Origin: Fulvia fulva | Taxonomy: Eukaryota; Ascomycota; Dothideomycetes; Mycosphaerellales; Mycosphaerellaceae | Length of the DNA: 64,000 nt | Direction: 5' to 3' | Assembly (NCBI RefSeq): GCF_020509005.1 | Contig: NC_063013.1 | Coordinates: forward strand, 5,146,001 to 5,210,000 | Translations under genes and position numbers: made by a program | Notes under the pieces: model-generated | Seen by the model: the letters and a program-made list of their open reading frames with translations, nothing else | Told to the model about the DNA's origin: nothing | Database searches by the model: none | Part shown: positions 19,682 to 51,590 of the stretch, piece by piece | Layout: every line of letters begins with the position of its first letter | How positions within the stretch are numbered: the stretch's first letter is position 1

Positions 19682-19686
19682 GACTA

Positions 19687-21757: not shown

Positions 21758-23833
21758 ATAGTTAAGGGTAGCTCGAGCTCCTTATCCGATACTCGTTTAA
21801 GTATTATATTAGCCGTTATTCGAGACCGCGGTAGTATATACCGTAGTAGCTAAAGTAGATACCTCTCTCGCTACTCTTCGAAGTATTATATTACGCGAGC
21901 GAAAGTAGATAGTACCTACTAGATTATACCGAAGTTACCGCCGGTATTACCTTATAGAGTTATCGTTACGTCCTTTAACGGCCGAAGGATCTTAATATGT
22001 CGCTTAATAATAGTCTAATTGTTAGCGGTAAGGGTATCGCGTACGATTAAAGGAGGTTTATAACTAGGCTCTATACCGCGCTCTATATAGCGGCGTAGAT
22101 AGTTATACTAGCTATCGACTTCTCGGCGTATAAACTCGTCGATAGTTAGTATTAGGTACGCGGCTCTCTCGGTACTATTAATATAGCTATTCTAGCGTAT
22201 CTCGATAGCGTAGATAATACCGTATATATCTTAAGCGCTATCCGACTTCGTTAGAGTAATAAGGTCAAGTTATAGTTAATCTAATAGCTCTAGGCGCTAA
22301 GGTAACGAGTTAATAAAATATAGTACGTAGTGAGACCGCCGATAGGCTCTCGCTTTCGCTATAGTAGTAGATTAGCCTCCTTAACCAATTTAATAGCGAT
22401 AAGCTCGTCTTCGAAGCCCTACGTAATATCGCCTACGTACTTACCGAAGAGCGTAGCTTATATAGTAAGGTTAAAGGTATAACTAGTATAGCGAAGCTAG
22501 TACTACTTCTAATCAAGTCCGTACTCGGTAGATATAAAGCCTATTACCTTCGGGTTGTTACTAGCGTTATTAGTAATAAAGTAACCGATCTTCTACTCTA
22601 CGCCGTAGTAGACAAGCGTATTACTAATTGTCTCGGAGATATTATATCTAGAATAACGACCTTGCTATCGTAGTAATACGAGTAGTATCTTCGTAGCTTT
22701 ACCGTCCTTATTAATAAAGTAATTAACGAGCCTAAGTAGAACGAGCTTATTCTTCGAAGTCTATAAGTCGAAGCTATAGCTGATCTTGCTTAATAATAAG
22801 GCCAATTCTTCCGTAATATAGCCTATTATCTTATTGTAGATTGTGTCGATTATTAAGCTAGTAGTAACTTAATACGGTAGATAGGACTTATCGCGCTCTT
22901 AAAGGTAGACAAGTAGTCGTCTAAAGCGTACTGTCTAGACCTTACGATAGGGGATATTGTCTTTAATAATCTAGCTATAAAGTAGTATAAGAAACTCGTC
23001 CTTATCGAATTCGATAGTACGCTCGTTATTAATCTACTACCTACTATAATATTAATCTAAGCCCTTTCTCTTCTCCTCTTTCGGTTAAATAATACCGTTA
23101 CTATCGATATGGTGCTTCGTCTTTATATAGTTCGAAGCACTAGTCGTAGAGACGTTAGTCTTATAGATGCCCTTCTCTTTTCTACTAGCGCTATAGTATA
23201 GCTTATAGAGCTAGTATTCGAGCCTATCTTTGTCCTTAATAAGCTAGCCGTGGTTCTAAATGAATAATAAGTGGTTACGGTCTTATGAGGTACGGCAATA
23301 GGCCTTTAGTCGCGTCTAAGCTAGCTAGTTAAGTAAGTCGTGCTTTCTCTTCCCTAGTACCTTAGATATATCGGCTTTATTACTCACGGCGTCGATCTCG
23401 ATAGTCGGCGCGAACAGATCTTTAGTATCTAGTACGGTTGAAAGCACACTGCTAGTCTCAACTTACTACGAGTCTATATTATGGTATAGTGAGGTCGTGA
23501 AGCTGATGCTTGGAGGTTGAGATAGACGCGTCGGAATTGAGAAGTCGGGAAAACTGAAGCGGAAAAGCACGTGACCATCGGTACGTAATCCGATTGGCTT
23601 AGAGATAGGTCCGCACTTCCTAGATTTCCACCTTCTTAGATCGACATGACCTTGAATGTCATTAACAACACCTTATAAAACGACACAGACATGCTCATAA
23701 GGCTTGCAAATGAAGGAGAAAACACCGCTTGATTGTTTGAAAATACTGACTAAGCTATAGGCTTCCAACTTGCTTGCTTGTGACAAGGCTTGATTGCAAA
23801 CCTTGGAGAATGACTTGCTTGTTGATCAGACTG
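21758..23833 (-). mobile_element. hAT DNA transposon, 5' half (TIR, BED finger, catalytic core start)
   Basis: On the complement the terminal inverted repeat starts CAGTCTGATCAACAAGC at 23833. A 5' leader almost free of RIP follows (about 23833-23480), then the RIP-mutated transposase. A BED zinc-finger half is at about 23190-23110 (TTSASNYIKTKHHID). Further on come SFDLxTSKNKLVLLRLVNYF, the hAT block with the first catalytic Asp, GRYSxYNISET, the DNAxNNPKVIG-like block and GFISTEYGLD. The frame ends at the Gypsy LTR with ELPLT. It continues in phase in the fragment at 50756. The 8 bases beyond the TIR (GCCAGACG, 23834-23841) are the inverted complement of those beyond the other end. Confidence 0.9.
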
Positions 23834-24650
23834 GCCAGACGTGTGCGGCGCACCCTCACATGGAACGTCAAGTCCTGATAGCATTCTCTGCAAGTAGCAT
23901 GGCATAGCAAAAGAGCAAAACAATCGCCGCTGCCGCAATGGCTAGCCACAGTGACAAAGAGAGTGTCATACTTTCTGACAACTTGCTCGCGATCATGACG
24001 CTCTGGGGCAAATTGCATCAAGCAGGACGCCTTACCATTGCGCCAACCACAATTGTCGAGAGGACTGGAAAGATGCGAGATCATATTGACTTAGACGAGC
24101 TAGAGCGTGTGAAGGCGGACAGAGGGTCATCTCTGACACTGAGCCAAAGAGGTGGCCGTCCAGAACATTCGACGTCAACAGTTGGACGGGCAAAAAGGAA
24201 TCCTCGCCATTGCTGCAATCGCGAACGCTTGCTCATTCTGCTCTAGTCTTGCTGAGCTTCCTTTGAAGAGCCCCTATCTGTATGCTGGAACAAAACATGA
24301 GCGAGTGCTCGCAGAGTTCTCCTGTCGGCTCGTGAACGCGTCTTCTTCTCCTGTCGCAACACTTGATCTATCGAGCTAAGAGCAAAAGAACAATCACCGC
24401 TGGCACAACAGCATCAAGCCGATGAGGAGGCCGACCCCACGCAGTCTACATGCGTCGAAGGGGCAGGCACACCAAAGCTTTTCTGTGATACCTTTGCGGG
24501 AACCACTTTGCCATTGTGCCAACGACGATTGTCGTCCATTATGTATGCCTCCCGTGAAGTACGGTTTTGCATGTGATCGTGAAGCTCACTTGAGTCAGGA
24601 GCCCGATCACATGCTTACCAAAGCTTGTTCAGATCCATAAGTAGACTGGG
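23834..24650 (-). repeat. Degenerate ~265 bp tandem repeat array, left part
   Basis: On the complement, two blocks recur: a TTGTGGTTGGCGCAATGGT-like block (24060-24030 and about 24530-24500) and a GATTGTTTTGCTCTTTTGC-like block about 120 bp later (about 23930-23900, a diverged one at 24225-24185, and 24400-24378). The same two blocks in the same order recur on the + strand at 51670-52350. Spacing is roughly 190-285 bp here. No open frame spans it and I see no protein homology. The unit sequence is highly diverged. Confidence 0.6.
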
Positions 24651-25179
24651 AAGTGCTCCCTCTCGATAAGCATCTCTGTCTGTATGGCTCAGTGGTTGAC
24701 GAGGGCGGTATTGGCTCATTCTTCACTCGCCCAGATAGGTGATGGCTTCTTCGTGCTGGCCACGTACCAAGAGCGCGTGGCGCTGTAGCTTGGAGTGCAT
24801 CGTCAAGCCTTATGGACAGGGGTGCTTGTTCTTTTTACCTCCCGACGAAGTCCTCACAGCTCACTCAAATGGGGGGACGATAAGGTCGAATGAAACATGA
24901 GCCAAAGTGGTATGTTGTTCCTCCATCCGCGTATCATCGTATCTAGGTATCTACGTACAGCTATCAATGTTCGCGTGGTATATATTTCGCCATAGACACT
25001 GCCAAGCTCCTCCAGTATGCCTTCCCGAACTCCACGCTCGCTATACAAGAAAATCCTCCAATGGTATCACATCAAAAAGATCAAAACTCCGCCCCATTGC
25101 TTCGCTTCGCTCGCTGAATGTACGTGATGCTGAATGCAAACAAACATATTCTCGCTGACGATGACATGCCCGGTAGACC
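24651..25179. other. Intergenic, nothing recognised
   Basis: About 530 bp downstream of the CBM48-domain gene. It has balanced composition, no RIP signature, and only short overlapping frames on both strands. It would hold the 3' UTR and terminator of the minus-strand gene, but I cannot pick a poly(A) site. Confidence 0.4.
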
Positions 25180-26805
25180 TCAAAAGCCCAACTCGCTAAA
25201 GATGTCCTCCGCCATGGATATTCCTTCACCTTCACTGAAAATGGTCGGGGTGGGTATGTATACTTCGTGCCTTGATCGCGGTGCCTGTGGTTGTTGTGGT
25301 GGTGACATTGTAATGGTCTTGGCCAGGGAATGGTTGCTTTCTGATGCCAGATTTGGAAGGGAGTAGTTCACAAATGTCGGCGATAGAAGGCGCGGGTGTG
25401 ATCGGCCGTTCGTTGTGGCGCTTCCTGCCTCGTACTGAGCTCGATCCTGGCTGGAGCTAAGCGACCAGTGCCGACCCGCATCTGCTTCAGGCACGTTTTC
25501 ATCGTTCACTGTCGCATGCTCACTGCCGGTGTAAGACGTCTGCGATGACATTGTGAAAGGCGAGTCATGATCCTCGGTGTCTACAGTCGATGCGGTGAAA
25601 GTTGGTGAGATCAAGTCGAACCCGGCGCCATCACTGACCGGTGTTGGATTCTCATCGACATCCTCCGATGCACGATGGGAGTAACATGACGTTGGAGACA
25701 CCGGTGAGCTTTCGTCCAGGTAGTCTCGTATTTCCATGTTTGGCAGAGAGTACATTCGAGGCCGGTGCTGTTCTGGATCCTCCGTCAAGCTGGTCCCCGG
25801 ACGTGAGCCGTAGAACTGTACATTCTGTACAGACTTCGGTCCGAGACTGAGCTCAGATATCCTCCTCATCTGCTTGCAAGTATCTTCGTCGAGTTGCTCG
25901 CTGTCATGTGCGTGTAACACACTTGCGATCACATCGTCAGACGTGAACATTGCTGCTGCTAGAGCCTCGTCCGACCCGAGCGGAGTTGGGCCAAGATCAC
26001 AGGGATATGGGAAGCTCGGAAGGTCACGAGGATCGTAGTTCTCCGAGTACTCCGAAGCTCCCAGGTCGAAGGTATCGGAGAAGACGCTCCCAGCTGCCTT
26101 GTGTGCACTCTGTGTTGGGGAGGCAGACTCTGGCTGGACATCCTCATCCTTCACTGGCAGATAATGTGACAGCTTGCTGTCGCGCGTCCCTTGAGGAGCC
26201 TCATGGTGTGCAGTAGAGACTGGCGAAACAACCTCGTCCACCACATTCACCGGTCCATTCTGATTCTCGAGCCGACCATCGAGTGCTTCATCGGACAGGC
26301 ACCGAGAGTGCACCTTTGAAATGGGCGGTGGCTCAAGGGCAGCCATCTTCTGAGCCGGATCGAGCGTCTTTTCCTCGCCGACATTCGCTAGACTGCCAGC
26401 AATGTCCTCTGTCACCCCGTATGCGCTGTGACACCGTGTTGGGGGCTCCACCATCTCATATGGTACATCAATGACGTTCACGGCCTGTCCAGGTAATAGC
26501 GGGCAGCCTGTGGTGTATTCCTGCCTGTCGTCGTAGGCATCGATGTCGTAGTTCAGCCGGTAGTAGTACCAGTAAGTGCCGCCCTGCTTGAGTCCTCCAC
26601 TACGCGGCTTGGTCCACTGGAATTCCTCGCCATCAAAGATGATATTCTCGAATTTGAAACATCCGCTCCAGAAGCCATTCCCTCGTCTTCGATCATGGTG
26701 CATACGGTATGGTTGGTTGAAGTTGTCCCATGATCCCATGAGCTCCACTGTCCGTACCTCAGGAGGTGCTCTGAACAGGAACGTGACAAGCGCTTCCGGG
26801 TCCAT
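25180..26805 (-). CDS. AMPK1-type glycogen-binding (CBM48) domain protein with long disordered tail
   Basis: 541 residues in one exon from the Met of MDPEALVTF. An upstream in-frame Met at 26859 would add 18 residues that do not fit the domain. Residues about 5-115 form an E-set/CBM48 fold as in AMPK beta subunits: VTFLFRAPPEVRTVELMGSWDNF, FWSGCFKF, GTYWYYYRLNY, and a final NVIDVPYEM. The family binds glycogen-like polysaccharide; Aspergillus EsdC is a fungal relative that affects sexual development, and I do not claim orthology. Residues about 120-541 are low-complexity, rich in Ser, Pro, Asp and Glu, with no other domain. It lies inside the inverted segment yet shows no RIP. The coding frame is clean, so it is likely functional. 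Confidence 0.8.
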   Translation of the reverse strand: MDPEALVTFLFRAPPEVRTVELMGSWDNFNQPYRMHHDRRRGNGFWSGCFKFENIIFDGEEFQWTKPRSGGLKQGGTYWYYYRLNYDIDAYDDRQEYTTGCPLLPGQAVNVIDVPYEMVEPPTRCHSAYGVTEDIAGSLANVGEEKTLDPAQKMAALEPPPISKVHSRCLSDEALDGRLENQNGPVNVVDEVVSPVSTAHHEAPQGTRDSKLSHYLPVKDEDVQPESASPTQSAHKAAGSVFSDTFDLGASEYSENYDPRDLPSFPYPCDLGPTPLGSDEALAAAMFTSDDVIASVLHAHDSEQLDEDTCKQMRRISELSLGPKSVQNVQFYGSRPGTSLTEDPEQHRPRMYSLPNMEIRDYLDESSPVSPTSCYSHRASEDVDENPTPVSDGAGFDLISPTFTASTVDTEDHDSPFTMSSQTSYTGSEHATVNDENVPEADAGRHWSLSSSQDRAQYEAGSATTNGRSHPRLLSPTFVNYSLPNLASESNHSLAKTITMSPPQQPQAPRSRHEVYIPTPTIFSEGEGISMAEDIFSELGF

Positions 26806-28295
26806 GGCTGCCAACAAGCAGTGCAGTGACTGCTCTCGTGAAGTGGTTCTTATCCACAATCAAATCGGTCTGCAACGCTCCCCAGACGACACCGTTGCTA
26901 CCATGCCATCGTTGTTCGTATTGTGCGCAACGAAGAAGAGGTGGAGATGCAGCACAGGTAATCAGGCAATCGGTTGGTAAACAGAGGTTGGAAAAGGCAT
27001 TGGACGTTGAATAGAGTTCGTGCACGATCGCCAGATCCCAACGGCTACCATGTGCGTCTTGCCCAGTGGTCCTTCCTTCCAGATGTAGACGCGGGACCTC
27101 TCGAGTCCAGAGCCGCCCTCGGTTCGGACACGCTAGATGAGGTCAGCAAGTGGCGGCGGCGCATTAGGAAGACGCGCGTGCCAAACGCGACAATGAACAG
27201 CGGTATATGAGAGACAGGGAACAACGCTCAATAGCGGGCGCGAAGACAGTTACATGTACATATGTACCTGAGCGCGAAGCGAAAGCAAAAGCCGCTGTGA
27301 CGTCGGAATTATAAGGTACATGTACCTAGGTAGCCTGTAGGCTGTAGGGATTCGAGCGAGGAGGAAAGCATAGCAGGGGTGACGGGAGCGAACTGGTGGA
27401 AGGTGACAAGGGTGTGTTCATGCGTTGTGGAGCAAGCTGATATACCACTCTTCCGAATCGGTAGACGCCGTTGCCATGCCACAGCCACTTCTGTCGCCAT
27501 TAGTCTCATTCTTGGCCGCTGGCGTCGAAACCTGGCGGCCATCAATACATCTCGTCCTTTTCGTGGTGCAGGAGCGGTCGACGTGGCCGCGACGATCTTC
27601 AAAGTCCTGTTGCTGGTGGCACGATCACATGCTGCACGAGCGCATGTCCCTTCTCAACCAGCCAGCTCTCCGCAGCAGTAACGGCTCTCCTCCCACCAAC
27701 ATGTTACATATCTTTGACGCGCTGGCTCGCTGAACGTACCATTTGGTTATCAAGAGACTAGAGTTGTGGCTTAACCCTTGCATGCTTGCCTCGATTGCGC
27801 TACGATTAACCGCCGGCGCAGGCAAACCCTCGCTGTAATTACGGAGGCAGGAGCGGTTGGCCAGGGCGAGGTCAAAACAAGGAACACAATTGACGTGCAT
27901 GAGCGTGTTGTGAATCTGATTCGGTGGTTCGTGGCTGTGATGGCTCCACTCGCTGATCTCCGTCTCGGCTGTACCGTTCCGGCCCTCTCGACGGTATACG
28001 TGCGAGGTAGATCCGATATGAGGTATTGGGTGGCTCGATGTGTGTCTGCTTCACCGACTTCATCAGCAGTGTCATCAGGAAGGCGCAGCAGAGGACATGG
28101 TCGTGTGGACATTCAAGTTGGCATTGAGCGCCCGAGGGGCCCTGATTGAGTTCATCACCCCACACGGAGACGCAGACAAGGAGCTCCCTGCTGAAAAGTC
28201 CCGAGCGGATGGTTACAATACCATGACCCGAGACGACGGCCACGACTTCTCGATTCGCCCTGATTGCTCTTCGCTACACACAAACAATGTCCGTT
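26806..28295. other. Intergenic region with TACATGTA palindromes
   Basis: About 1.5 kb separates the CBM48 gene from the S10 pseudogene and includes the promoter of the former. Two palindromic blocks stand out: ACATGTACATATGTACCT (27252-27269) and GGTACATGTACCTAGGTA (27314-27331). ATGTAC-type palindromes and CTAGGTA words are common in ascomycete intergenic DNA. Many short frames overlap on both strands, and none has a recognisable domain or a convincing start. Confidence 0.4.
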
Positions 28296-29597
28296 CATCT
28301 TCATAACATGTCCATCTTCTTCTGGCTATTTGACGCACGCACCAACTCAGAGAACGCCCCTCTTGTAGCGTGGCTGAACGGTGGCCCGGGGTGTTCCAGC
28401 ATGATTGGAAGAACATGGCCCTTGCAAGTTCTTCAATGCATCCTCTGAGCCGTCCAATAACCCCCAGAGCTGGAGTGAGTGGGATGATCCCCAAGGGTGG
28501 ATGCATCTTTCACATGCTGGCATGGGGTAGACCAGGCAGCTAACATGCTGTATATCGATCAACTAATCAACACTGGCTTTTCCTACGGGTCCCCCAACTT
28601 CAATTCGACGTTCAACGCAGCGCCCTACGTTTACACCTTCTTGCAGAAATGCGTCCAAGATTTCCCGCAGTACAAGCCCCGCGAGCTGAGTGTCTTTGGG
28701 GAGTCCTACGGCGGCCACTGGATCTATTACGCAGAGTACATTGCCGAGCAGAATGATTTGATCAAAGCTGGCAAACTCAACGCCACGCCCTTGAACCTCG
28801 CCTATGTCGGGTTGAACAATGCCTGGTACAACCCCATCTTGCAGATGAAGGCGCACGTCGACTACAGCTATACCAACGGCTGATGGGACATCATCAACGA
28901 AACTGAACACACGTACTTCCTTGGTCAGTACGAGAAGTATTGCGTGACTTCTGAAGAAAAGTGCATGACACAGTACGGCAACGATCAGGCATGCATAACC
29001 GCAGGCGACGATTGTTACAACTACGTTGAAGCCCCGTTGATCGCGCAGAAGACGTACGAATTGTACGATGTCAGAGAGCCAGTCGCCACTAATCCTCCGG
29101 AGACATACGTGCAATATCTCTCTCGTGCAGATATTCAGAAACAAATCGGAGCCAAGGTCAACTACACCGAGTGTGCGGCGGGCGACCGAAGTCCTGGCTA
29201 TCGCTTACAGCTCACGGGAGATAGTACGTCAATCTACCTGATGCACATTCAAAGCTAACAGCGACTCAGACGCGAGAACAATGCTCCCATATCTCGAAAA
29301 TTTCGTGAACCGTGGCATCCCCACCTTGATATGGGCTGGAGATACCGACTGGATCTGCAACTGGATGGGAAGTTTATATGTAGTCGATGCGGTCAACTTT
29401 CCCGGTGATTCTCAATTCCGTAACGCGACCCTCGCGCCTTACGATATCGCGGGCAAGAAAGTTGGACTTACAAGAAGCAAGGCACCTTGTCGTTTATGAG
29501 GGTGTTTGAAGCAGCCCATGAGATCGCCGTGTATCAGCTGGAGACTGCGCTGCATGTTTTCAGCCAGTTCTTGAAGACGGGGACAATTAGTGGCTGA
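28296..29597 (+). pseudogene. Serine carboxypeptidase (peptidase S10), frameshifted and truncated
   Basis: Secreted acid carboxypeptidases of this family remove C-terminal residues. The body is recognisable from end to end. [18 protein letters not shown] and LNGGPGCSS lie at 28314-28410. [18 protein letters not shown] appears in a shifted frame at about 28408-28462. ANMLYIDQ, GFSYG and the nucleophile GESYGGHW lie at 28540-28722. WAGDTDWICNW (catalytic Asp) is at about 29332-29365 and AAHEIAVYQLETAL (catalytic His) at about 29510-29552. Two introns are plausible (28476 to about 28542; 29224-29269). The breaks are a frameshift near 28406, an in-frame TGA at 28881-28883, and a frameshift near 29465. 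The signal peptide and N-terminus are not found. All three catalytic residues persist, so decay is recent or the breaks are assembly errors. Confidence 0.8.
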
Positions 29598-30330
29598 GCG
29601 TGAGACTATCGTGCTCAAGATCACCGAGAGAGAAGATTGTGCTGGGGAGAATTGCACTAAAGATCGTGAGGCCAGTCGGGAGGGTCGGTCTCGAGAGCTT
29701 TCGTAAGACTCACAACTCTTGTCCCAACGCACGACCATGATATGAGAGGGTGTGCAAGTTGTCATGCCATTGAAGTCTCAGACAAGCATCACGCGCTTGA
29801 AGAAGGGTTCTGCACTGCATACGCCGAGCCTTACAACCACAGTGCCAACCGCTGCTACTTTTCTGCGCACCAACACTTGGCTTTCCCGTGTCGTAGGGGA
29901 CTTCAGGACGTCGATCGTCTTGAGCTTGAACAACTAGCCTCCGACGTACATGATCCGGCATTCGGAGTGGAAGCCCGGGCGGGGGTGGGATGGCTGCGTT
30001 ACATGTACAACACTACTACCTTCACTGGAGGGACAGTGAGAACCGTTCACGAAACGTGAGGAGATACGTACCAAGCTAATGTAAAGGCGGATCACTACGC
30101 GCTGGCTCATTCGGGAGCTGTTGATGCTATCCGTTCGAAGGAAAGGTCCGGCCTGGCTATCGCCTTTCGTTTGGGGTGATAGAGGGGTTCGACGGCTGTT
30201 CGATCCTGTCTGAATGATGGCTCTTACGGATGCACAACGCAAGAGTCAGCTTTGACGATCTTCGAAGCTTCTCACTATACCCAGTGGACGGTGTGACTTG
30301 CTGCTATCAGCGCTATGAGTCCGGTCCTCA
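29598..30330. other. Gap between the two peptidase pseudogenes
   Basis: About 730 bp with only short overlapping frames. Part of it (about 30200-30330) could be the scrambled N-terminus and propeptide of the S53 pseudogene: an AIS...GPQ stretch resembles the ISDPxSxxYG region but is in the wrong frame. A lone TTACATGTACAA word lies at 30000-30011. Confidence 0.35.
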
Positions 30331-31782: not shown

Positions 31783-31849
31783 TAAGAGTATGGAGCAGAT
31801 TGAATGCATAGAGAGCAATTTTTAAGGGTCCGCGAAGGTGTCGCACAGG

Positions 31850-32470: not shown

Positions 32471-35400
32471 TGTTAAATAGGTTCGGATTGATAGTAGCGG
32501 AGTGGAGTAAGAGATTAATCTTCAACTGACTAATAGCACGAGTATGCAGCAATATATTAGGAACTAATGTGTTGATTGTGTTAGATGTCTATCTAAGCTA
32601 AAGGGGAGAGAAAGTATCTCCCTATAAGCTAAGTCATCGTAGATGCCTTAGGCTACTAGATCACTTCCTGATTGTTGACTCCCTTTAAGATGCTACATCT
32701 TAACACTCTAACTCATCTCGTATAGGAGGTTACAGTCTGCTTACTTCCTGTCAATAGTACTTGGACCTTTTTATAATAGGTTAAGCTAGCTTACAAACCT
32801 CTAGAAGTGTAGACTAGTCTTTAGTTTTGTAAACCCGTCTACAACTATCTTAGAGGTTAGGGTGTACTTAATAGCAATAAGCCTCCTCTACTAAAGTTTC
32901 CTAACAGCGTTATAGGCAATGTCAATGTGCTTCGACTTGTTATAAACATATACATCTTTTACTAGGGTAAGGGCAGCTTGATTATTACCTCTTAATTAGA
33001 CTAGTCTCAAATTTGATACAGTCTCCTAGTTTCTAGTGATTCTTAGTTAATAGGAATAGTCTCCTACTAACTCTAGACAATCCATTTCTCTTAGTAGTGA
33101 AGCTAGGAATTAGGACTGCTTTATACATATATTTATAGCTATATATTCAGCCTCTATTATAGATGTTGCTACAGACTTTTGCTTCTTACTTATCCAAGAA
33201 ACTGGTGCCCTACAGAGGAAGAAGACATACCTAAGGATTAAGACTCTGTCTACTTTGTCTATAGTATAATCAGAATTATAGTATCTAATAAGGTGTCCTT
33301 TTCTAGACTTTGAGAATCGAAGTCCTAGATCAGGGTATGATCTTAGGTACCTAGTGATCTTCTTCAAAGCCTTTATATAGTAGGTGGATAGGTCACTTAC
33401 AAATGAGCTTATCCTTCCTAGGGCAAAAGTAATGTCTAGCCTTGTGATTGTTACTAGCCATATCTAAGTACTATTGATACTCTAGTACTCTGCCTTATTA
33501 CACCTCTTATCTATATAGCTTGAAGGTTTGAGGGCCTTATAGCTGTCTATAGGTAAGTGTATAGGTACTGCCTTCTTATAGTTCATTCCTATCTTAGCTA
33601 GGCCATCCCTAATAAAGTGTCCTTAGTCAAGTTTCAGGTTTCCTCTCTTCCTATCCCTTATGACTCTTATGCTAAGGATCTTTTCAGGTTCACCTAGATC
33701 TTTGATCTTAAAGATCTTACTAAGTTCTCTTTTGAACTAGAGAACATCTGTTAACTTTAGTGTAGCAATTAGAATGTTATCTATATATATAAGGATTATG
33801 ATCTCCCTCTTCTTATAGATAAGTAGGTATAGATCCACTTCTAACTATGTGAATCCAATCTCTCTGAGCTTTAATACACAGAGTTGATTCCAATCTCTAG
33901 CTACTTACTTAAGTCTATATAAGCTTTTAAGGATTTTGAACACTATGTTTAGTAGAAGCTCAACTCCTAGTAGTGGTAACATAAAGATGTCTTCATAGAG
34001 GGTGCTTTCTATAAATATATTGTTCACATCCACTTAATAAAGATGAAGATCCTTCTTATACACAATAGCTATAAACACCCTAAGGGTGTCCTGTCTTACT
34101 ATAGGTACAAATGTCTCTATAAAGTCAACACTAAACTTCTGTAAGAAGCCCCTTATAACTAGTCTAGCCTTGAACTTTTCAATAGCTCCACTAATGCTTC
34201 TCTTAATATTAAAGACCTATCTTGATGTAACTAGATTTGCTCCTTTTAGTAGAACAGAATTTTCCTAGGTGTTGTTACTCTATAGAGCATCTAGTTCCTT
34301 TTGGATTGCTTCCTTCTAAAGATGTCCCCATTTCTTGTCATTCATAGCATCCTTATAGGATTTTGGAATTAGGACCTCTTACTTGTATATAATGGCTTCT
34401 ATAGTTACTATAAAGGCTATTTCCTTAACTTCTTCTAGGAATTCGCTATCCTATAGTATTGAACTGTCCACTGATTATATAGCTATAAAGAAAGCTTAGT
34501 AAAAAGCAGCAAGGTTCTCTAAGAGGTCTATTGCTTCTCCTACTTTAGTGGTTAGTTCGGGCTTAGGGACTATAGATTTTAGGGCTTTCTGTTTCATATC
34601 ATAGCCCTCAACATCATAGTCGGCCTTTCTATTTCTAAGGGATGATTTAGGGACCGTTACTTATAACCTAGTAACGTCTATTTCCTAGGGATCTAGGGAG
34701 CTTCTCTTAATTAGCTGATCGATTTTCTGAAATTCCCCTACGTTCTCCGGAGGTTAGGGAAGTTGTACAAACAGCTTTCTCGGCTGAGCGACTTTAGGGC
34801 TCTTAATTGGCTAATCTATTTCGGGGGGGCTCTAATGGACGCCTGAATAGTAGGTAGATTGTCCTAAGGATACGTTCTTCCTCGGCCTTCCTAAGGGCTT
34901 CCTAGCTAGTACGCTACTTAGTAGATTTAATGTTAGAACATTGAGACCTATATTACCTCTAGGCTAGTCCTTAAAGAAGTCTATATATATGTGTTGTTTA
35001 ATAGCTCTTATATCTGGTTCCTAAAAGAGCTAGGCTTTAGCTATGTTTTTAACATACCTAATAAATACTGCTTCTTTACCCCTATTTATTAGCTTGTCAC
35101 TTCTTACCTATTAAGGTTAGGATCTTGTGTCTATATAGACAATAGCTTTGCATCCCTAAACTTTCACATAGTCGATGGTCGGTTTGATACTATTCAAAGC
35201 CTTATCTAGTGAAACCTTAAACCTATCGTAATCTAGGCTATTTAGCAGTTTGTTCCTTATATAAGTTTAGGCCTCTAGTGCTTTAGGCCAAAATTTAACC
35301 GGCATTTTAGCCTCTTTAAGCATTGCCCTTATAGAGTCCTCTAAGGTTTGTATTGACCTCTTAACTGGTCTATTCTATAGAGAGTTGTATACCTTAGTCG

Positions 35401-38091
35401 GCTCGAGCCCAATCCCTAAATCCTTCTCCTACTACTTTACTAATGTAATAAGTTCTTTTAGATTGTTAAGCCTTACTACTTTTAGCTACGCTAATGATTT
35501 CCTCTCTGCTTTGATCTTCTAGTTCTAGAGAGCAACTAGAGCATCTTCTCTTTTCCTAAGAGGAAAGGTCCACTTATTCCTAGAGAAGTTGTTAATAATC
35601 TTAAGCTAGTATTTGAATCCTAGTCTTAAGATTAGTAGTAGGCTATATATGTCAATAGATATAAGGGCAAGTCTTTTAGGTCTTCTCTCTATAACTTTGC
35701 CTTTGTACTTCTTTATCTTTGCTATTAAATATACTCTACACTAGTGAAAGCTATCCTTAGGGATAGGAATAGGTTCTTTTAAGTCTGTTACCTTATAAAG
35801 ATTCTAGAGCAAATTCTTCCTAAAGTGTATAAATCTTCTATACCAAAGCTTCTACTACTTTAGGTCGGTCTCTAATTGAGTAGTCACAAAGGCATTCTCT
35901 ATTAGTAGTGCACATAATGAGTAATGTGCCCGTTCTTGTAGGAGAGGAGAAATCTTATTAATGAATAGAACCCCCTTAAGGAGCTTTGTCTAGACAATAG
36001 TCTTACTAGAGGGGGAAACAAGAGAAAATGATAGAGGTTGAACACCAAACTACTTGCTAAACTAGTTCTATAAAACCAGGTTTACTCTAAGCTTAGGTAT
36101 AAGTAGGACATCTTCTAAAACAACTTTTCTACTAGCTCTCCTACTCATCTCTACATTCCTAATATAAGTGGCTAATAAAAACCCACCTCCTACTTTGATC
36201 CATTTCTTCCTTATTAAGGGAGTTATAGATCTAAAGAGGTAGCTTTAGTCAGTTATATAGAATAAAGCATAGGAGTCAAGTAACTACTCTAACAAGGGGA
36301 ACTTGCCTTAGACTTCTATAGTTAAGTGAGCCACTTTATCATACTTATCATCATCAGACATTGTCTCTAGGGATAAGCTATATAAGTCACGTAACTCTTA
36401 GGCGGAAAACCCTTTTCTAGTCTTCTTTACTTTAGAGGTATAAGACTAGGCCTAGTTCTTCTAGAGCGGCAGTATATTAGAGCTAAGTTTCTTCACCATT
36501 TTCTTAAGTTCTTCTATAGAGGACTTCTCTCTTAGTGTCCTCCTTAAAGTGGGTAGTAGAGTTCTCTTCTTCTTAACATGTATTATATTCTAGGAAGATA
36601 GTAGTTAGGAATAAGATCTAAGGACCTTTCTTACCTTAGGTAGACTAGGGCAGTCCTTAATCAAATGATCCTTCTTATAGAGAAGGTAGGAGAGTGGTCT
36701 TACTAGACCTAATAGCTTGACCTAGGTGGCTACTATACTATACTTAGCCTTAGAGGGATCTAACCTAGCTTCTTAAGCTTCAAGGATCTTTAAGGTCCTT
36801 TTATAATCCATCTTTAGCTAAGCTATAATGGTATCCCTAGCTATATAGTAGTCAGGTGGCAGTGAGCTTAAGAGCTAGGTCATCCTTACATTAGCTTTCC
36901 TATAATACTGACCCTCTAGGTCAACATCAGCAATCCTTTTTCTAAGAGAAACTAGGTGTGTCTATATAGATCTAATAGTGAACTCTTTACTTATCTCAAA
37001 GGTCACAAATTGCTTTATAAGCTCATATATATAGGTTAGTAGCACCTAGCTATACTTGTTCTAGAGATATACCCACTTCTTAGCAGCTCTTCTAGATTTA
37101 TATAAGCCCTTAAGCTTAAATTCATCTTCTTCTATAATCCTACTAAGGATACTAAAGTTGTATACTATATTATGTCTTGTCTATATTAGCGTATTAAGGA
37201 TCTCTTTAGTTATAGCCTCTTCTTAGAGTTTTAGAGTCTTGCCCTTAATGTTGTCAAAAGACACTTCTATTAGGTCATTAATTATAAAGAATACTAATTG
37301 GCTCTCTATCTTATATCTCTAAAGGTTGAACTATCTCTTCTAATTGTCCCTCCTAAGAATTAGGATTTTGCCTCCCTTCTCCTCTATCTTCTCTTAGTAT
37401 AAATCTATAATAGATTAGATGCAATGAAACAAGGTGTGTATGTTCTAAAGTAGTGGCTTAGATCCTACTGAGGCTTCTAGTATAGAATAGGAAAGTTCGT
37501 AGGTGTAGATACTAAGGCCTGCTTAGTAAAGTAAAGAAGGAGCGGTATAAGGTCTCGGGGCTAGGACACAGGTCTGTCTCTCCTAGCAGAGCTTTAAATG
37601 ACTTACTTGAAGTCCTTCTTAATAGTATCTCGATACAGTTCTACCTATAGAGTATCTTTAAGGTATTGGCTTTAAGTAAGCCGTATAGAGTCCTTGTCTA
37701 GGTTACCTATTACTTAGTATCGAACTAAGCTCCTTGACAGGATAGACGGGGTAGACTTCTGATTCCCAGATGTTTTCTGCTACGATAGTAAGGGATACAA
37801 GTAACCTGTACTGATATAGGTTGCTCTTATTCCTACATAAACCCGGGCTCATAACCTATTCAATAGGTATGGGTAGATAGTAGCGGAGTAGGGTAAGAGA
37901 TCAATCTTTAACTAACTAATAGCACGAGTATATAGCAATATATCAGGAACTAATATGTTAATTGTGTTAGATGTCTATCTAAGCTAAAGGGGAGAGAAGG
38001 TATCTCCCTATAAGCTAAGTCATCGTAGATGCCTTAGGCTACTAGATCACTTCCTAATTGTTGACTCCCTTTAAGATGCTACATCTTAATA
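32471..38091 (-). mobile_element. Old Copia element, RIP-mutated relative of 14066-19681
   Basis: It is co-linear with the young copy along its whole length, with 235-bp LTRs at 32471-32705 and 37857-38091. Differences are mostly C to T in CA or G to A in TG, producing stops throughout pol (complement of about 32760-35800) and gag (about 35860-37420). An 85-codon RNase H shard survives at 33110-33367. Some non-RIP substitutions and small indels show that the two copies came from slightly different sources. The flanking five bases differ (GAGGA left, GTATA right), and the flanks belong to different elements (Tc1/mariner left, Gypsy-3 right). It is therefore probably a recombinant. Confidence 0.88.
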
Positions 38092-38658
38092 GTATATATA
38101 ATATATTACTATCTACCTTATAGTACGTAGGGTGTATCTTCGCCTTCTATAAGAGTAGAGGGATAGTACTACCTTTCCGTAGTATCTTAATTGCCGCCTT
38201 AAGTTCTTAGTCTAGGGCGTAAGTAGTCGTTATACGGTACTCGAGTTTAGCTTCGACTTCAGCTTTATTCGTAGTCTATACTTCCTAAGCTAGTACTAGC
38301 TATGTTTGTAGTACCTGTTCTAGTTCTAGAATAAACTCGATTACTTTAGGATTTAGAGGAGTCGTCTCTTCTTCTTCGGGCGTATCTTCGATAGTAGCTT
38401 ATATAGAGTCGATCTTAAGGAGTCGCTCTAGCGGAAGCAATGTCTAATACTAGTACTAATTTCTCGGATCATCTACCCCCTATAGAAGGTCCTAGCTACG
38501 TCTCGTTAGGCTATCTAGCTTCGTTCCTTATATACCTAGGCGGTATATAATCTAGAAGTTGAATTATAACAGAAATTCTACCTATCGCGCTTGTCGGCAA
38601 TTTAGCTACTTCGTAGTTATAAAATATTCGAGGTTCTTATAGTCTATAAATACTTTAA
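38092..38658 (-). pseudogene. Gypsy-3 RNase H and tether segment
   Basis: The complement matches 13640-14060 joined to 19682-19880 of Gypsy-1 with no Copia insertion, so this copy keeps the empty site. It runs into the LINE at the target duplication (38645-38658). Stops are RIP-type. Confidence 0.75.
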
Positions 38659-39142: not shown

Positions 39143-39192
39143 CCATCCCCCTTCTAGCTTAGCTTCGTCCCGAAGCTTATAGTCGTTCGGGT

Positions 39193-39870: not shown

Positions 39871-39895
39871 GGCCGTTGTCGTCAGGTTGTTTCTG

Positions 39896-40891: not shown

Positions 40892-40917
40892 AGGGCCCTG
40901 GTGGTGGTGCTCAAAGT

Positions 40918-44200: not shown

Positions 44201-46202
44201 GGGAAGCTCCTAGAGAAGGTCGTAGCTATAAGGCTTACCGGAATAGTAGAAGAACATAACCTCCTCCCGGTAACGTAACTAGGGGGAGATAAAAGAGATC
44301 TACCCTTATAGTAGTCGAACTGATTATAGAGCAAATCAGACATATCTAGTACTATAGTAATAATAAGGTAGCCTTACTACTTTTACTAGACATATTAGGG
44401 GCTTTCGATAACGTGTCCTACGTAAGGCTCCTATATATCCTTAGAATAAAAAGAATCCTAGCCTAGATAGTACACTTTATATAGTCATTCCTTAAGGACA
44501 GAACAACCTAGATCCTCCTAGGGTCCTTTAAAGCCCCGTAGACCCTAATTACGAACACGGGCATCCTATAGGGCTCTATACTCTCCCTAATTCTGTTCCT
44601 CCTCTTTATAGCCGACCTGACCCTACTCCTAGAAATAGTAAACACCTTAGTATCGGGGTTCGTAGATAATACAAATATCCTAGCGTAGTCGGGGTCTATA
44701 GAGGAAAACTACGCACTCCTAGAGGAGAGATATAGACAATACGAAAAGTGGGCAAGAGAGTATAGGGCAAAATTCGTACCGGATAAGTACTAACTTATCT
44801 ATTTTAGTAAGGTAAAGACAAAACACAACTTAGTAGTACTAGTAAAAATCTAGGGGTTCGAGACCTATCCTATAAGGGAACTTAGAGTCCTTAGGATATA
44901 GCTAGACCCGAAACTTAGCTAGGGACTATAAGTAAAGAAGGCGTAAGCGAGAGCGGACACTAATAGACAATTAATCGAGAGACTTACTACGTTAACCTAG
45001 GGGGCGACCTTCACAAAGGCCTAGACTATATACAAGGCTATTATCAAGCCCGTAATGCTATATAGAGTAGCAATTTAGGTAGCGGAAAAACACATCCCGA
45101 AGAGAATTAAGGACCCCCTTAATAGAGCGTAGGTAGCTTACCTAAAGAGAGTACTAGGGGTATATAAGTCAACCCCTTATAGGACAATAGAAATGGAATT
45201 AGGTATAGCCCCTATTAGGGAGTACCTCTAGGGCATGAGGTGTTAATACGTAGAGAAGACATTAGTATACCTAGCCTAGGGAACTATTTAAGTAGCTACT
45301 TAAAGGATAAGAACCTAGTAGGAGAGGAGGAGAAGACCTAACCGGCTATATATAATCCTATAGAAGGAAGTAGACCTAAAAACATTATAGGAAATCCTAG
45401 CAGCCCTTAAATAGAGAGAAGCTCTAAGGGAGCAAGCTAATATAGGGGACAAAGGGACAAAGAAGTAAAGCTAAGTAGAAAGGATCGTAGGTCACCTATA
45501 GGAAACGCGTTAGAACCAAAAACCGGTAAGGCTAGGAGCCCTACTAGCGGCTAGGACCTTCGGGAGGTATAACTACCTTATCTATAAAGACCTAAAGAGG
45601 GCGGAAGCAAGTATAGCTATCTAGATTCACTCTAAGTATATTAGGCTAAGAGCATACTTATACTAAAGAAGAGTCCTAGGATACGATTCTAAACGTTGCC
45701 CTTATAGCTACCTATCCTAAAACCCGGAGCACATAGTGCTAAACTGTACTAAGTAGGTAAAAGGGAGAAGCTAGTAGGGGGCGAAGGTAAGAGATAGGCA
45801 ATACTAGGCTATTATCTAGAACAGACAAGATATAAGGAGAGTGATAAGATAGATCCTTAACAAGGACTACCTAGAGCAATTCTCCCTAGTAGTAGAAACG
45901 GAAAGGTAGATAGAGAGGAGGGAGAGAGAGAGAAGAGCCGGGGAAACAGAAGGGAGAAAGGGAATCGAGAGGAGGACATTACTAGGGTTACGGGCAAGGT
46001 AGTTATAGGGTAATAACTATAACACTAGCGTACCCTAAAGGAAGGAGAACGAAAGGACAAGATAGGAAAGAACGAGGAGGGCAAAGACGAGGAGGTTTTC
46101 ATCCGTTAATTGGGTTTCCTACCTATATAAATAGACCTAAATAGCGAGATACCTATATAGGCTATAGGGTACTAAAACAGGCGAATGAATAATCCATCTA
46201 TC

Positions 46203-49200
46203 TATAAACACTTTGACTAAATCGCCGTCCTCGTCTACTTCGTAAGTAAGCTCCGGGCGCTACTCTTTGAATACTTTAATAATCGCGAGGAGTTCCTTAT
46301 CGTAGATCTCGTAATTATACTCCTAGGGGCTTAGCTTCTTCGAATAGAAAGCTATAGGATGTAATACTCCCTACTCGTTGTATTGTAAGAGCACACCTAT
46401 ATTAATAAAGTCTAAGGAGTTAGTCTCGACGACGGTCTACCTACCCGGTATATAGTATACTAGTATACCCGCCTTACTAAACGCTACTTTTGACGCCTCG
46501 GATACCCTCTAGTAATTATCAGTCTAGTTGATTCTACGGTTCTTATGATTACTAGGCCTATCTAACTTTGTTAGGTTAGTTAATAGGGATGTAATACGAG
46601 AGAAGGCCTCGATAAACCTACGGTAGAAGCTCGCGAATCCTAGGAAGGCTTAGACATCCTTAAGATTAGTTAGTACTTCCTAGGTCTATATACATTCCAA
46701 TTTCTCCGGGTCTATCTCGATGCCCTAGGGTGTAATAATAAGGCCTAGATATTTTATACGTTTCTAGTAGAACTCGGACTTATTAATATTAATAGTAAGC
46801 CCGGTATCTCGTAGCTTAATTAATACCTTTCGTACGTGTTCGACGTGTTCCTCTAGAGTGTTGCTAAAGATAAGGACGTTATCTAGATATACTAATATAA
46901 AGTTATCTAGATGTTCCTATAGAACCTTATTAATATATAACTAAAAGGTTACGGGTCCGTTATAGAGGCCGAACGGTAATACGAGGTATTCGTATATACC
47001 GTAGTATATTACGAAAGCTATTAGCTACTCGTACCCTTCCGCGATACGTAACTTATTAAAGACTACTATAATATCTACTTTCGTAAAGTACCTCTTTCCG
47101 TATATACGGTTAAGCGTTTTCTATATTAATAGAATAGGATAGTAATTCTTAATAGTAATAGCGTTTAGCCTACGGTAGTTAATATATACTCGTAGCCCTC
47201 CTCTAGGCTTTCTTACTACTAATACCGGTGCCGGTAACTAGCTTGTTTTCTAACCGGCCTTACGTACCTTACCTTCTAAAGTCTATTCGAGTAACTATTT
47301 CTTAACGGCTTTATTCTCCTTCTCGGCTAGTCCGTATAGCTTTCGATATAGCCGTTCTTAAGGTCTACCGGGTTTGATATAAATCTCGTAGTCGATACCT
47401 AGTCGATAAGGTAGGAGTCCCTCGTAGTCCTTTACTAAGAAAGTATCTATAATGTCGTAGTATAAAGGCGGGAGCTTCTCTTTAGGATTGTAGTTGAACT
47501 GCTTGTTTAAGAACTAATCTAGGTCATTAGCTACTATCGCGCTTAGTTTAAGGCTATTATCGTTATTGTCGTTATCCTCGCGCCCTATAGGTATAATATA
47601 GAAGTACTCGGCCCTAGGCCGGTACGCGTATATCTCCTATACGCGCTACGAGACTTCCTAGTAATCTACCTCTTTATCTACCTCTAGAGCGGACATATTT
47701 AGCTCCGCCCCTCCGGCTATAAATCCTACTCACTCGCTAGTAAAGGGCTTTAGTCTATATTTTGTTTACTAGATTCTACCGATATAGTTTAGAGATTGTA
47801 CTATAATTGATGTCTTATTATATAGATAGTGACCGAAGCAGTAGTTAGATCTAAACGCTACCTCGCTAGTTTCCTAGAAGATGTTTAGGTTATACGCGGA
47901 GAGCTACGGTAGTCTAAAGACGATGTCGTATTCGAGGTCGGTAACGTAGTATAGTATTTACTCGTAATAACGGCCGATAACTACGTCTATAAGGGCTATA
48001 TATATAATCCAACGCGCTATAGCGGATCTATCTCCTAGTATTAATCGTCTGTTCTTCGTTAAAGGGATTAAGGGGGTTATATATTTATATATAAATTTCA
48101 AATTAAGAAAGAGAGAGGTAGAGGTAGAATCTATAAGGCCGCGAGCCTTTTTATATTTCATTATTACGGGTAATACTATATAAGGGTGTATAGCTAGTTG
48201 TTATTTATCTAGTATATATACCGATATCTTAAGCTCCTTACTATAGTCCGTCTCTTATATTCTATATCGCTTAACCTTATACTCTTTCTATCTTAGAAAG
48301 CTCGGTTACTAACCGCTATCTACTACGCTTAGGTAGCGGTCGTACCATTTCCCTATTACTATAGGTCGGTAGTAAGGGAGCTAAGGTTTAGGTTAGCGTT
48401 CGCGTTATTTTGTAGGCGTAGAGGGCGGTAGTCGCCGTCGTAATTATATATCGAGTATTCGGGGTTCGTTAATACGTACGAGCCTATACGGTAGCGGTAG
48501 TACTTACCCTACTTCTTAAGGTCCTCCCGCTACTTACGGTTTAATGAAGGTAGGTTCTATAAGTAAACCGGTAGGTCCTCCTTCTTCTTCGTACCTACGT
48601 ATTATAGTAGTCGCTAGACGATTATAGCGGTCGTACTAGTAGCTACGGCGCCTACGGCATTACTACCGCCCTATACGCCGTTATTATTCGAATTAGGGTT
48701 ACTACGTAGGCGCTCCTTCTATAGATATAGTCGGTCGGTCTCGTAGAAGCTCTTATCTAATACCGTATATTCCTTAATAACATCCTATATATCGTATAAG
48801 CGTCTATCTACTTCCCTATCGCCGAAAGTCTTAATAAAGTACTTACGGTTTAGACGGTTACGGAAAAGCATTAGCTTAGTCTCGTCGGTCTACTCTATCT
48901 AAGTACGTAGCTTCGAGTAGTAAGCGTAGAAGGTAATAAAGGTCTTACCCTACTCCTACTTATAGGTAGCGATATTAACTATAGCCTTAGTTCCTTCGTT
49001 ATAGGTACCGTACTAGCGTATTATCTAATCTAGTAGTTCTTTACTAGTCTTGAACTCGTTAAATAATTGTTATCTAGGTACGGGGATCCTCGGCTTAATA
49101 CTTCTCTAAGGGTCACCCTATGTCTATCTATATATAAAACGTAGGCCGTCTACCTCGGAGCGGAAAGTAGTTATAGTTAGCTTAAGAAGTACGCTACTAT

Positions 49201-50571
49201 ACTAACTATCGAAGTTAGGGTCGTTATCGTTCTTAAAGTACTTCGGGTTAGGTACGCCCTTACTAACCTCGATACCGCGTATTAGAGTACGGTTAATAGT
49301 AAATAGGCGTTCTAAAAGTTCGGTTAGGGGAGTCTATATACGGGTATTACGCGCTCGAGGGTCGCGACCGTTATTGTTATTAGGTCGTAGATGGTTTCTA
49401 TTACGTCCTTAGTCGTTATTACTATTACCGTCGTTATTATTATTACTACCGCCTCCGCCGCCGCCTCTACTAGTAGCTTTACGATACTTACGTATTAGCT
49501 ACTTAAGTAAAGTCTCGCGCGGAGGTAAATAGGAGGGTCGGCGACTAGAGCGGCCCCTACCTCTCTTCTATATAGTGTCTTTAGTAGCTTAGAGTCGAGT
49601 CTTTAGATTGTTAACCTCCTTCTATAGAGCCTAGTTCTTAGCTTCGGCATCCTATATCATCCTTATCTCCTTTTCGTAAATCTCGCTAAATTACTATATA
49701 GGTTATTAGCCTCCCTATACTTCTTCTCTACCTCTTATAACTTTGCTAGGTTATAATCCTTCTTACTCTTTAGGTCTACGGCCATCTTCTATATTATAGC
49801 CTCCTCGCTTCGTAGTATCTTATAGATGCGGTTATACTCGGTATATAGCGTAGTATACTAGGTGTTCTAGAGGTTATTAGCTCGCTCTATTATATCGAGT
49901 TGTCTACCTTTAGTAATCGCTATATTTACTACCTATAGCACAAAGTCGTAGGTAGTCTTCGGGTACTAGGATACGAGGGTCGTAAGTTTTTCTAGTATAA
50001 CATTCTAGTATTCGGATACGAGAATGTACTCTACTTCGTCGAGTAATAGGTATACCTCGTCTAGGTCGCCGCCTAGGTTCTCTTCGAGCTTAAACTCGAA
50101 TAGTTCTATAAAGTCAATCTTACTACCTTCTCTCTCGCTCGAAGGCTTTCTAGTAAGCTTTATTAATTTCCTATTATAGCGCGACACCGGTTTCTACTAT
50201 AACCCGCCGGCTATCGTCCTATATCTAACTCTAAGGAAAAGGGGCGAGGTCGGGGAAAAGAGATATACGCTACTTACCTTTACTCTTAGGCTTTAGTAGC
50301 GGTAGTATACCGCCGTTCGTCTATAAAGTTATATTATCTAGGTTCGGGGGAGGCGTAACGATGCCTGTTTCCTAACTGTCTACGAGCGCGCGACTACCTA
50401 CTAATAATATCGCCGCGTTACGTTCTCTAGGTATTTACGCGCTATACGCCTTACCGTGTTCTATGTTCTAATACGACTCTACGCGTCCTTCGAGTTCTAT
50501 AGTTCTGTCTATTCCTATTGTTACGTGTGCCTTACCTAGATCCGCGATCTAGGTAGAGTAGTAGAATAAAC
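46203..50571 (-). pseudogene. Gypsy-3 gag, protease and reverse transcriptase remnant
   Basis: In the minus sense it runs from the 5' LTR at 50755 through a 60-codon shard (50187-50005, identical in protein sequence to 2488-2670), a gag coiled coil, gag, a decayed CCHC (about 48540-48480) and RT (about 47260-46850, including the YLDNVLI box) to the RNase H start. It is then cut by the LINE at 46203. It shares most mutated and many unmutated sites with the 5' part of Gypsy-1, for example the spared CA words just inside the LTR. Close common descent or gene conversion between the two inverted copies is likely. Confidence 0.8.
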
Positions 50572-50755
50572 TATAAGGGCGCGCGTACCGTAGGGTCCGA
50601 ATAAGAGAGTTGTTGTTCTACGAAGCTACGAAAGAGGAGTGCGAGGCGTAGCAAAGTTATAAAGTAGAGCCAAGCCGTGCTAACCCGATACGGAAGGTCC
50701 GCGGTTCACCCGGGCCGACGTAGCTATAGTAAGGGGTCGCGGGCTACCCGTAATA
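50572..50755 (-). repeat. Gypsy-3 5' LTR abutting the hAT 3' half
   Basis: 184 bp, the same family as the four other LTRs and closest to 1920-2103. It is directly followed by ACCGT (50756-50760), the unmutated copy of the hAT-internal target duplication. Confidence 0.85.
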
Positions 50756-51590
50756 ACCGTAGAGGGTCACTTCTCTATAGCAATTAACCTTACTTAGTAG
50801 AAGATAAGTAAATACTTTATACGATTAGACGACACGCCTATATACGTACTAGTAGTCGTATTATACCTAAGAATAAAGTAGCGTTAGCTTAAGTATAACG
50901 AAGCGATAGCCGCTTTAGTCCTACTAATACGTAGATTATAGGCCGTAAGAAAGAGGTAATAAAGCTCTAGCTAACCTATAAGCTAGTCACAATTAAGAAG
51001 AAGTAGCCGTAACAGTCCTTATACCTTACCGTCGATAAGGGCTTCGTCGAAGATTACGAGAGCGACGAAGATTACGCTTAACGAGGCCTCGATAAGATAG
51101 AGCAGTATATACGCCTACCGCGGTGCCCTTAAGCTAAGCTTGCTATTACTGATTCACCTATCAAGTATTAGGTTGATAAGCTACCGTAATGGCCTAATCT
51201 AGTACGAATAGCGCTCGATATCTACTGCTGCCCTATAATAAGTGATGAGCCGGAGCGATAGTTTAGTCAAGTAGGTGATATTCTTATACCGAAGCGAAGG
51301 CACATAGAAGCAAGCACTATCAACAACCTAATGACCTTGAAAAGCTGGTGCAAGCAAGGGGTGATAACGATTGAGAAAGAGCTGTTCAATAGGGTGAGAA
51401 CTCCGGCAACAACACCTCCGACAGCAACACTAGCAACGACGACGATATAGGTCTTGGCACGTCACAAGTTGAGCAACCAAGGCAAGTCAGATGCTGTGTA
51501 TTCACTTGCAAGGCAAGTCACGAGCTAGCAGGGTACAAACAATCAAGTCATCTACCTCATTTTTGACTCGTTTGTTTGTTGATCAGTCTG
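50756..51590 (+). mobile_element. hAT DNA transposon, 3' half (C-terminal dimerisation domain and TIR)
   Basis: Read through a few stops it gives TVEGHFSIAINL, KISKYFIRLDDTPIYV (the hAT TPxYxAA block) and then, in un-RIPed sequence, IALDIYCCPIISDEPERQFSQ, GDILIPKRR and INNLMTLKSWCKQG, which is the hATC dimerisation domain. The transposon ends at 51590 in GATCAGTCTG. On the complement this is CAGACTGATCAACAAAC, the mate of the TIR at 23833. The next 8 bases, CGTCTGGC (51591-51598), are the target duplication. The first codons continue the frame that stops at 21758. Confidence 0.9.

What the first reader, a model, noticed from the sequence alone, without database searches (positions are those of the whole stretch)
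21758..50760. A hAT transposon cut in two and separated by a ~29-kb inversion
Three independent junction tests agree. (1) The two hAT fragments (23833->21758 on the minus strand; 50756->51590 on the plus strand) have matching TIRs, CAGTCTGATCAACAAGC and CAGACTGATCAACAAAC. (2) The 8 bases outside them are the same: CGTCTGGC at 51591-51598 and its complement at 23834-23841. (3) The broken transposase frame rejoins exactly: ...ELPLT then TVEGHF..., with the T codon shared through a Gypsy target duplication, ACCGT right and ACTAT (RIP-decayed) left. A Gypsy therefore jumped into one hAT, and the interval between was later inverted. The breakpoints lie inside the oppositely oriented Gypsy copies. 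Genes at 24-32 kb are thus in flipped orientation relative to the ancestor, and the mismatched TSDs of Gypsy-1 are explained. The two fragments together make a ~2.9 kb hAT.
Basis: partly seen in the sequence, partly recalled or inferred. Interest (0 to 1): 0.9.

Follow-up and report, generated by a model that had tools for sequence, protein, structure and literature searches.

The report
Transposon halves mark an old inversion
One jumping gene in a tomato-mould fungus was interrupted by a second jumping element, and its two halves now face opposite ways because the DNA between them was flipped: an ordinary kind of rearrangement, reconstructed here unusually completely.

Summary
Confirmed, with corrections. 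The window lies in a 67,169,167-base, 14-contig genome whose size and contig number match the published Cladosporium fulvum Race 5 assembly. The two hAT pieces are halves of one insertion. Their outer 8-bp flanks are identical once reversed (CGTCTGGC); of 309 non-pair end combinations in the family, only this one matches fully. In 19 of 19 uninterrupted copies examined, the inner edges lie exactly 5 nt apart, as a 5-bp target duplication predicts. Gene order in relatives agrees: the genes flanking the two halves carry consecutive locus tags in five of eight relatives with both tags visible and tags two apart in a sixth. Undoing the inversion restores that adjacency. The breakpoints lie inside oppositely oriented Gypsy copies, so the inverted interval is 18-49 kb today, not 29 kb. 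A 4.5-kb, 98.4%-identical tract of the two Gypsies is the likely crossover zone. The far side is further damaged: a protease-like gene is truncated, a Copia has mismatched flanks, and one Gypsy has lost its 3' part. Ectopic recombination between TEs is a known mechanism (Drosophila Galileo): a new example, not a new kind.

The parts
21758..23833 (-). hAT left half (TIR at 23833; N-terminal and central part of the transposase gene, full of stops)
50756..51590 (+). hAT right half (C-terminal dimerisation domain; TIR at 51590)
   Evidence: Dimer_Tnp_hAT E=1e-9
23834..23841 (-). 8-bp target duplication of the hAT, left copy (CGTCTGGC on the minus strand)
51591..51598 (+). 8-bp target duplication of the hAT, right copy (CGTCTGGC)
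21758..21762 (-). 5-bp duplication made by the Gypsy insertion, left copy (ACTAT on the minus strand)
50756..50760 (+). 5-bp duplication made by the Gypsy insertion, right copy (ACCGT)
1920..6416 (+). Gypsy-1, 5' LTR and first part; 98.4% identical to the inverted 46259-50755
6417..13631 (-). Gypsy-0, full-length copy nested in Gypsy-1 (duplication GTAGC at 6412-6416 and 13632-13636; the site is empty in Gypsy-2)
13632..14065 (+). Gypsy-1, middle part
14066..19681 (-). Copia-1 nested in Gypsy-1 (duplication GACTA on both sides)
   Evidence: RVT_2 and other Copia-type domains
19682..21757 (+). Gypsy-1, 3' part with integrase zinc-binding domain, and 3' LTR abutting the hAT left half
46201..50755 (-). 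Gypsy-2, 5' LTR (abutting the hAT right half) and first part with reverse transcriptase and RNase H domains
38092..38658 (-). Gypsy-2, middle part; the rest of its 3' part is missing
32471..38091 (-). Copia-2, with unlike flanks GAGGA and GTATA
25180..26859 (-). gene next to the hAT left half (its homologues carry precomputed PF28357)
   Evidence: no Pfam match in the scan
28497..28880 (+). serine carboxypeptidase (Peptidase_S10) gene fragment inside the flipped segment
30661..31790 (+). protease-like gene cut off at about 31.79 kb; a paralogue (C3) matches only to its residue 340 of 446
52778..54257 (-). NIPA magnesium-transporter gene next to the hAT right half
55094..57997 (-). Hsp98/ClpB-like gene, next after NIPA

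Best explanation
A hAT DNA transposon inserted between the PF28357-family gene (now at 25180-26859) and the NIPA gene (52778-54257), duplicating CGTCTGGC (read directly from the sequence). A Gypsy retrotransposon then inserted antisense into the hAT transposase gene, duplicating ACCGT (read directly). RIP-like decay followed (inferred from dinucleotide composition). Another Gypsy copy in the opposite orientation lay on the far side of the PF28357 gene and its neighbours, inside a Copia LTR (its natural 5' end at 1920 is in the sequence). A crossover between the two opposed Gypsies inverted everything between them and left two chimeric Gypsies, each with one half of the hAT at one end (inferred; most likely within 1920-6416 / 46259-50755). 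A separate event, probably recombination between two Copia copies, removed the 3' part of the second Gypsy and the end of a protease-like gene (inferred). The structure has no function of its own; it is a scar.
For: Matching outer 8-mers with family control. Exact 5-nt junction in 19 of 19 copies. Both halves have the same highest-scoring other copy, C1:754035-756944. Gene order: PF28357-gene and NIPA tags are consecutive in Dothistroma septosporum (69996/69995), Cercospora berteroae (09600/09599), Meristemomyces frigidus (003906/003907), Recurvomyces mirabilis (000950/000949) and Saxophila tyrrhenica (009687/009688), and two apart in Vermiconidia calcicola (016286/016284); 14 contig lengths occur in both lists. 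In Zasmidium cellare NIPA and Hsp98 are consecutive (PRZ48_002770/002771), as in the window. In the window the PF28357 gene and NIPA are 26 kb apart. Gypsy-1 has unlike flanks, CTATT and ATAGT. The 5' tracts of Gypsy-1 and Gypsy-2 differ at 73 of 4497 positions, the shared later pieces at 39 of 614 (Fisher p = 1.7e-10). Of the 36 copies scored (of 1,576 candidates) against Gypsy-1's 5' part, Gypsy-2 ranks first after itself at 98%; the next is 96%.
Against: The 3' end of the second Gypsy is missing, so the exchange of flanks can be checked on one side only. The 98.4% tract may come from later gene conversion instead of the crossover, and 96% for the next copy is not far below. The left duplication differs at two positions (both transitions). 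Two of the eight relatives with both tags visible (Baudoinia 274926/274873, Cercospora zeae-maydis 29392/109148) do not have neighbouring numbers, though the contig length is shared; Cercospora zeina has different contig lengths in the two lists. Tags in JGI style, Dothistroma's included, need not follow position. No reads and no DNA of a relative could be examined.
Confidence: 0.85

Rival explanations
1. Assembly error: the real chromosome still has the PF28357 gene beside hAT and NIPA, and the assembler flipped the segment between the inverted Gypsy arms.
For: The arms are an inverted repeat of 4.5 kb at 98.4%, and the un-flipped order is the one in relatives.
Against: The published assembly used PacBio reads of mean 14,638 bp at about 125x; Sniffles called only two possible variants, neither supported by Illumina reads (passages of PMC9453070). 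Arms of 4.5 kb with 73 differences are short for such reads. An error between the arms would not explain the truncated protease-like gene or the mismatched flanks of Copia-2.
Confidence: 0.06
2. A real inversion, but made by another route: breaks repaired by end joining inside the Gypsies, staggered breaks with inverted duplication, or aberrant transposition of hAT ends.
For: Only one of the two expected exchanged flanks can be checked; the second Gypsy is incomplete.
Against: Gypsy-1 is continuous across its whole length (with two clean nested insertions, GTAGC and GACTA) and begins at a natural LTR end at 1920, not at an arbitrary point. The hAT ends each keep one copy of their own duplication, so no new hAT transposition is needed.
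Confidence: 0.08
3. The two pieces are halves of different hAT elements that happen to lie near each other.
For: At least 18 other copies of the family are in the genome.
Against: Identical 8-bp flanks, unique among 309 non-pair combinations; exact 5-nt complementarity at the break; adjacency of the two flanking genes in relatives.
Confidence: 0.01

Closest known systems
Galileo-generated inversions of Drosophila buzzatii (2z3 and others; PMC2775673, abstract and passages seen)
   Same: Two copies of one TE in opposite orientation at the two breakpoints, unlike (exchanged) target duplications, chimeric copies, other TEs nested at the breakpoints.
   Different: Here the TE is a fungal Gypsy, the segment is small, one breakpoint copy is incomplete, and the marker that proves the join is a second transposon (hAT) that one of the recombining copies had inserted into.
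TE-associated rearrangements in Cladosporium fulvum (PMC10823647, passages and one section seen)
   Same: Same species; rearrangements at repeats, including a nonreciprocal translocation linked to a 5.6-kb Copia with 240-bp repeats, much like the Copia of this window.
   Different: Those are differences between isolates; this one is read from a single genome and is not among the three large variants that the paper lists.
Nested interrupted hAT copies elsewhere in this genome (e.g. C12:2419197-2435581, C9:191486-208325)
   Same: Same family, split by insertions, identical 8-bp flanks.
   Different: Their halves stay on one strand; only the window's are on opposite strands among the pairs found.

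Membership tests
hAT DNA transposon | 8-bp target site duplication | tested here: met
   CGTCTGGC at both ends; 10 of 11 same-strand pairs of the family agree
hAT DNA transposon | short terminal inverted repeats | tested here: met
   CAGTCTGATCAACAAGC / GTTTGTTGATCAGTCTG, 15 of 17 complementary
hAT DNA transposon | C-terminal hAT dimerisation domain in the transposase | tested here: met
   PF05699 E=1e-9 in the right half; no Pfam match in the left half
Gypsy (Ty3-type) LTR retrotransposon | LTRs with 5-bp target duplication | tested here: met
   Gypsy-0 flanked by GTAGC on both sides, empty site in Gypsy-2
Gypsy (Ty3-type) LTR retrotransposon | order reverse transcriptase, RNase H, integrase (order recalled) | tested here: met
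   RVT_1 and RT_RNaseH in the first part; Integrase_H2C2 and SH3_Tf2-1 in the 3' part; pieces scanned apart in two copies
TE-mediated inversion by ectopic recombination | two copies of one TE, opposite orientation, at the two breakpoints | tested here: met
   Gypsy-1 plus, Gypsy-2 minus
TE-mediated inversion by ectopic recombination | exchanged target duplications at both breakpoint copies | tested here: inconclusive
   Gypsy-1 flanks unlike (CTATT/ATAGT) and its 3' flank pairs with the 5' flank of Gypsy-2 up to two transitions; the fourth flank is lost
TE-mediated inversion by ectopic recombination | gene order flipped relative to an outgroup | tested here: inconclusive
   Adjacency of PF28357 gene and NIPA in relatives fits; strand in relatives could not be read
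TE-mediated inversion by ectopic recombination | both breakpoint copies chimeric | not testable with these tools
   needs the un-inverted parent sequences

The most novel reading that the evidence does not exclude
The two opposed Gypsy arms still recombine: the segment with the PF28357 gene flips back and forth, or the arms are kept alike by gene conversion despite heavy RIP, so both orientations occur among isolates or nuclei.
Probability: 0.07. Interest if true: 0.6.

Novelty: new member of a known kind. Interest (0 to 1): 0.35.

Why it matters
RIP is often expected to make repeats too unlike to recombine (recalled, from no call). Here the RIP-decayed copies of one Gypsy family that were scored mostly still match at 92-96%, and two of them appear to have served as crossover partners. 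The locus also shows that a hAT's 8-bp duplication can work as an address label: it pairs separated fragments and tells which arrangement came first from a single genome, here backed by gene order in relatives. The same scan over all DNA transposons of a genome could date and polarise old inversions.

Tried and rejected
Two unrelated hAT elements: rejected by the flank control and the exact 5-nt junction. Nested insertion without inversion: rejected because the halves are on opposite strands; six other interrupted copies with identical 8-mers keep both ends on one strand. Missing end of the protease-like gene: sought with a C3 paralogue in the window and in 20 kb to its left; beyond residue 340 there was no significant match (E above 0.05); the rest of the genome was not searched for it. 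The stretch 31860-32469 matched only itself in the genome and stays unidentified. Absence of Gypsy-1 from the 40 scored matches is no evidence, since its piece is split by Copia-1 and scores less for that reason. Literature: the listings showed no title on this locus; supplementary files could not be read, so it may be described there.

Full report
Where it is. The window is contig C2, bases 5146001-5210000, of a genome of 67,169,167 bases in 14 contigs. The published assembly of Cladosporium (Fulvia) fulvum Race 5 has 67.17 Mb in 14 chromosomes (passages of PMC9453070). The species name rests on that match.

The hAT. Genome searches with the two pieces separately gave 43 matching rows for the left (40 of 54 candidates scored) and 27 for the right, including several uninterrupted copies of about 2.9 kb. 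The highest-scoring other copy is the same for both halves, C1:754035-756944. The right half holds the hAT dimerisation domain (PF05699, E=1e-9); the left half gave no Pfam match. Outer flanks: 10 of 11 same-strand end pairs in the family have identical 8-mers, one (C7) does not; among 309 non-pair combinations only the window's opposite-strand pair is identical. Inner edges: in 19 of 19 distinct uninterrupted copies exactly 5 nt separate the two flanks, most often ACCGT; ACTAT, the form at the window's left junction, is also found in 2 of the 19. The two pieces are therefore one element cut by an insertion with a 5-bp duplication.

The Gypsies. Self-comparison and junction reading give this order. 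Gypsy-1 runs on the plus strand from 1920 to 21757 and holds two clean nested insertions: full-length Gypsy-0 (6417-13631, duplication GTAGC) and Copia-1 (14066-19681, duplication GACTA). Gypsy-2 runs on the minus strand from 50755 to 38092; its site for Gypsy-0 is empty, and it is interrupted between 46201 and 38658 by other repeats. Its 3' part is missing beyond Copia-2 (32471-38091). Gypsy-1 ends against the left half of the hAT, and Gypsy-2 begins against the right half. In the hAT's own direction this is one antisense Gypsy insertion: 3' LTR against the left half, 5' LTR against the right half. Gypsy-1's own flanks do not match (CTATT and ATAGT). Reverse transcriptase and RNase H lie in the first part and integrase domains in the 3' part.

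The inversion. The 8-bp duplication says that the flank at 23842 (towards the PF28357 gene) and the flank at 51599 (towards NIPA) were once adjacent. Gene order in relatives tests that independently. Homologues of the two flanking genes (best 120 of 208 and best 120 of 3295 listed) share 14 contig lengths, which I take to mean that they lie on one contig. Both locus tags are visible for one assembly in eight relatives: consecutive in five, two apart in one, not neighbouring in two (Baudoinia, Cercospora zeae-maydis; contig length shared). JGI-style tags, Dothistroma's included, need not follow position. Cercospora zeina has different contig lengths in the two lists. In Zasmidium cellare NIPA and Hsp98 are consecutive, as in the window. 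In the window a carboxypeptidase fragment, a truncated protease-like gene and the repeats now lie between the PF28357 gene and NIPA. Turning the segment back puts the PF28357 gene beside NIPA with the hAT between. The strand in relatives could not be read; the prediction is that the two genes are convergent there.

Where the crossover lay. Any point in the shared Gypsy sequence would do, so the inverted interval is between 19867-38091 (18.2 kb) and 1920-50755 (48.8 kb) today; later insertions have changed its length. The first 4.5 kb of the two Gypsies differ at 73 of 4497 positions, the later shared pieces at 39 of 614 (p = 1.7e-10). Against Gypsy-1's first part, Gypsy-2 is the best of the 36 copies scored (98%), followed by a copy 18 kb beyond the window's right end at 96% and the rest lower. 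This points to exchange in that tract, by crossover or by conversion. It does not prove which.

The far side. Copia-2 has unlike flanks (GAGGA, GTATA), not explained by C-to-T changes alone. The protease-like gene before it stops matching its paralogue at residue 340 of 446. The 610 bases between are single-copy. The simplest reading is a Copia-Copia recombination that deleted the 3' part of Gypsy-2 and the end of the gene; this is inference. The published C. fulvum work describes rearrangements at a Copia of like size.

Misassembly. It remains the main rival, because the un-flipped order is also the one in relatives. Against it stand the read length and depth reported, the authors' variant check, the shortness of the arms, and the extra damage at the far side. 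The 2024 comparison of five isolates lists three large variants, none on Chr2, and gene-order blocks covering 98.8-99.8% of genes, which suggests, but does not show, that the arrangement is common to the isolates.

Novelty. Inversion by ectopic recombination between opposed TE copies with exchanged target duplications is known from Drosophila Galileo (PMC2775673, abstract and passages). This is a new, small, well-marked fungal example in RIP-decayed repeats.

Noticed in passing
38847-41213: A young LTR element with two identical 296-bp LTRs and duplication TCGGG on both sides, GC-rich and without the RIP-like composition of its surroundings. It lies inside the repeats that interrupt Gypsy-2.
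   Followed up: partly
31790-32470: Single-copy, AT-rich stretch between the truncated protease-like gene and Copia-2; origin unknown.
   Followed up: partly
1682-1919: A 44-bp start of a Copia LTR followed by a nearly complete Copia LTR in reverse orientation that lacks its last four bases where Gypsy-1 begins; a palindromic remnant.
   Followed up: no
L059 (G000:C7:2354788-2356499): A short hAT copy whose 8-bp flanks differ at 4 of 8 positions, unlike 10 other pairs; perhaps another rearranged or recombinant copy.
   Followed up: no
G000:C6:2231738-2247906: Right-half pieces of the same hAT family on both strands within 16 kb; a possible second inverted hAT, or a fragment of another copy.
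   Followed up: no
28200-29260: The serine carboxypeptidase stretch looks like a decayed gene with frame changes.
   Followed up: no
1-646 and 45558-46205: Direct repeat at 95.7%, continued left of the window in L044 (97%): ends of another RIP-decayed repeat family, one copy of which interrupts Gypsy-2.
   Followed up: partly
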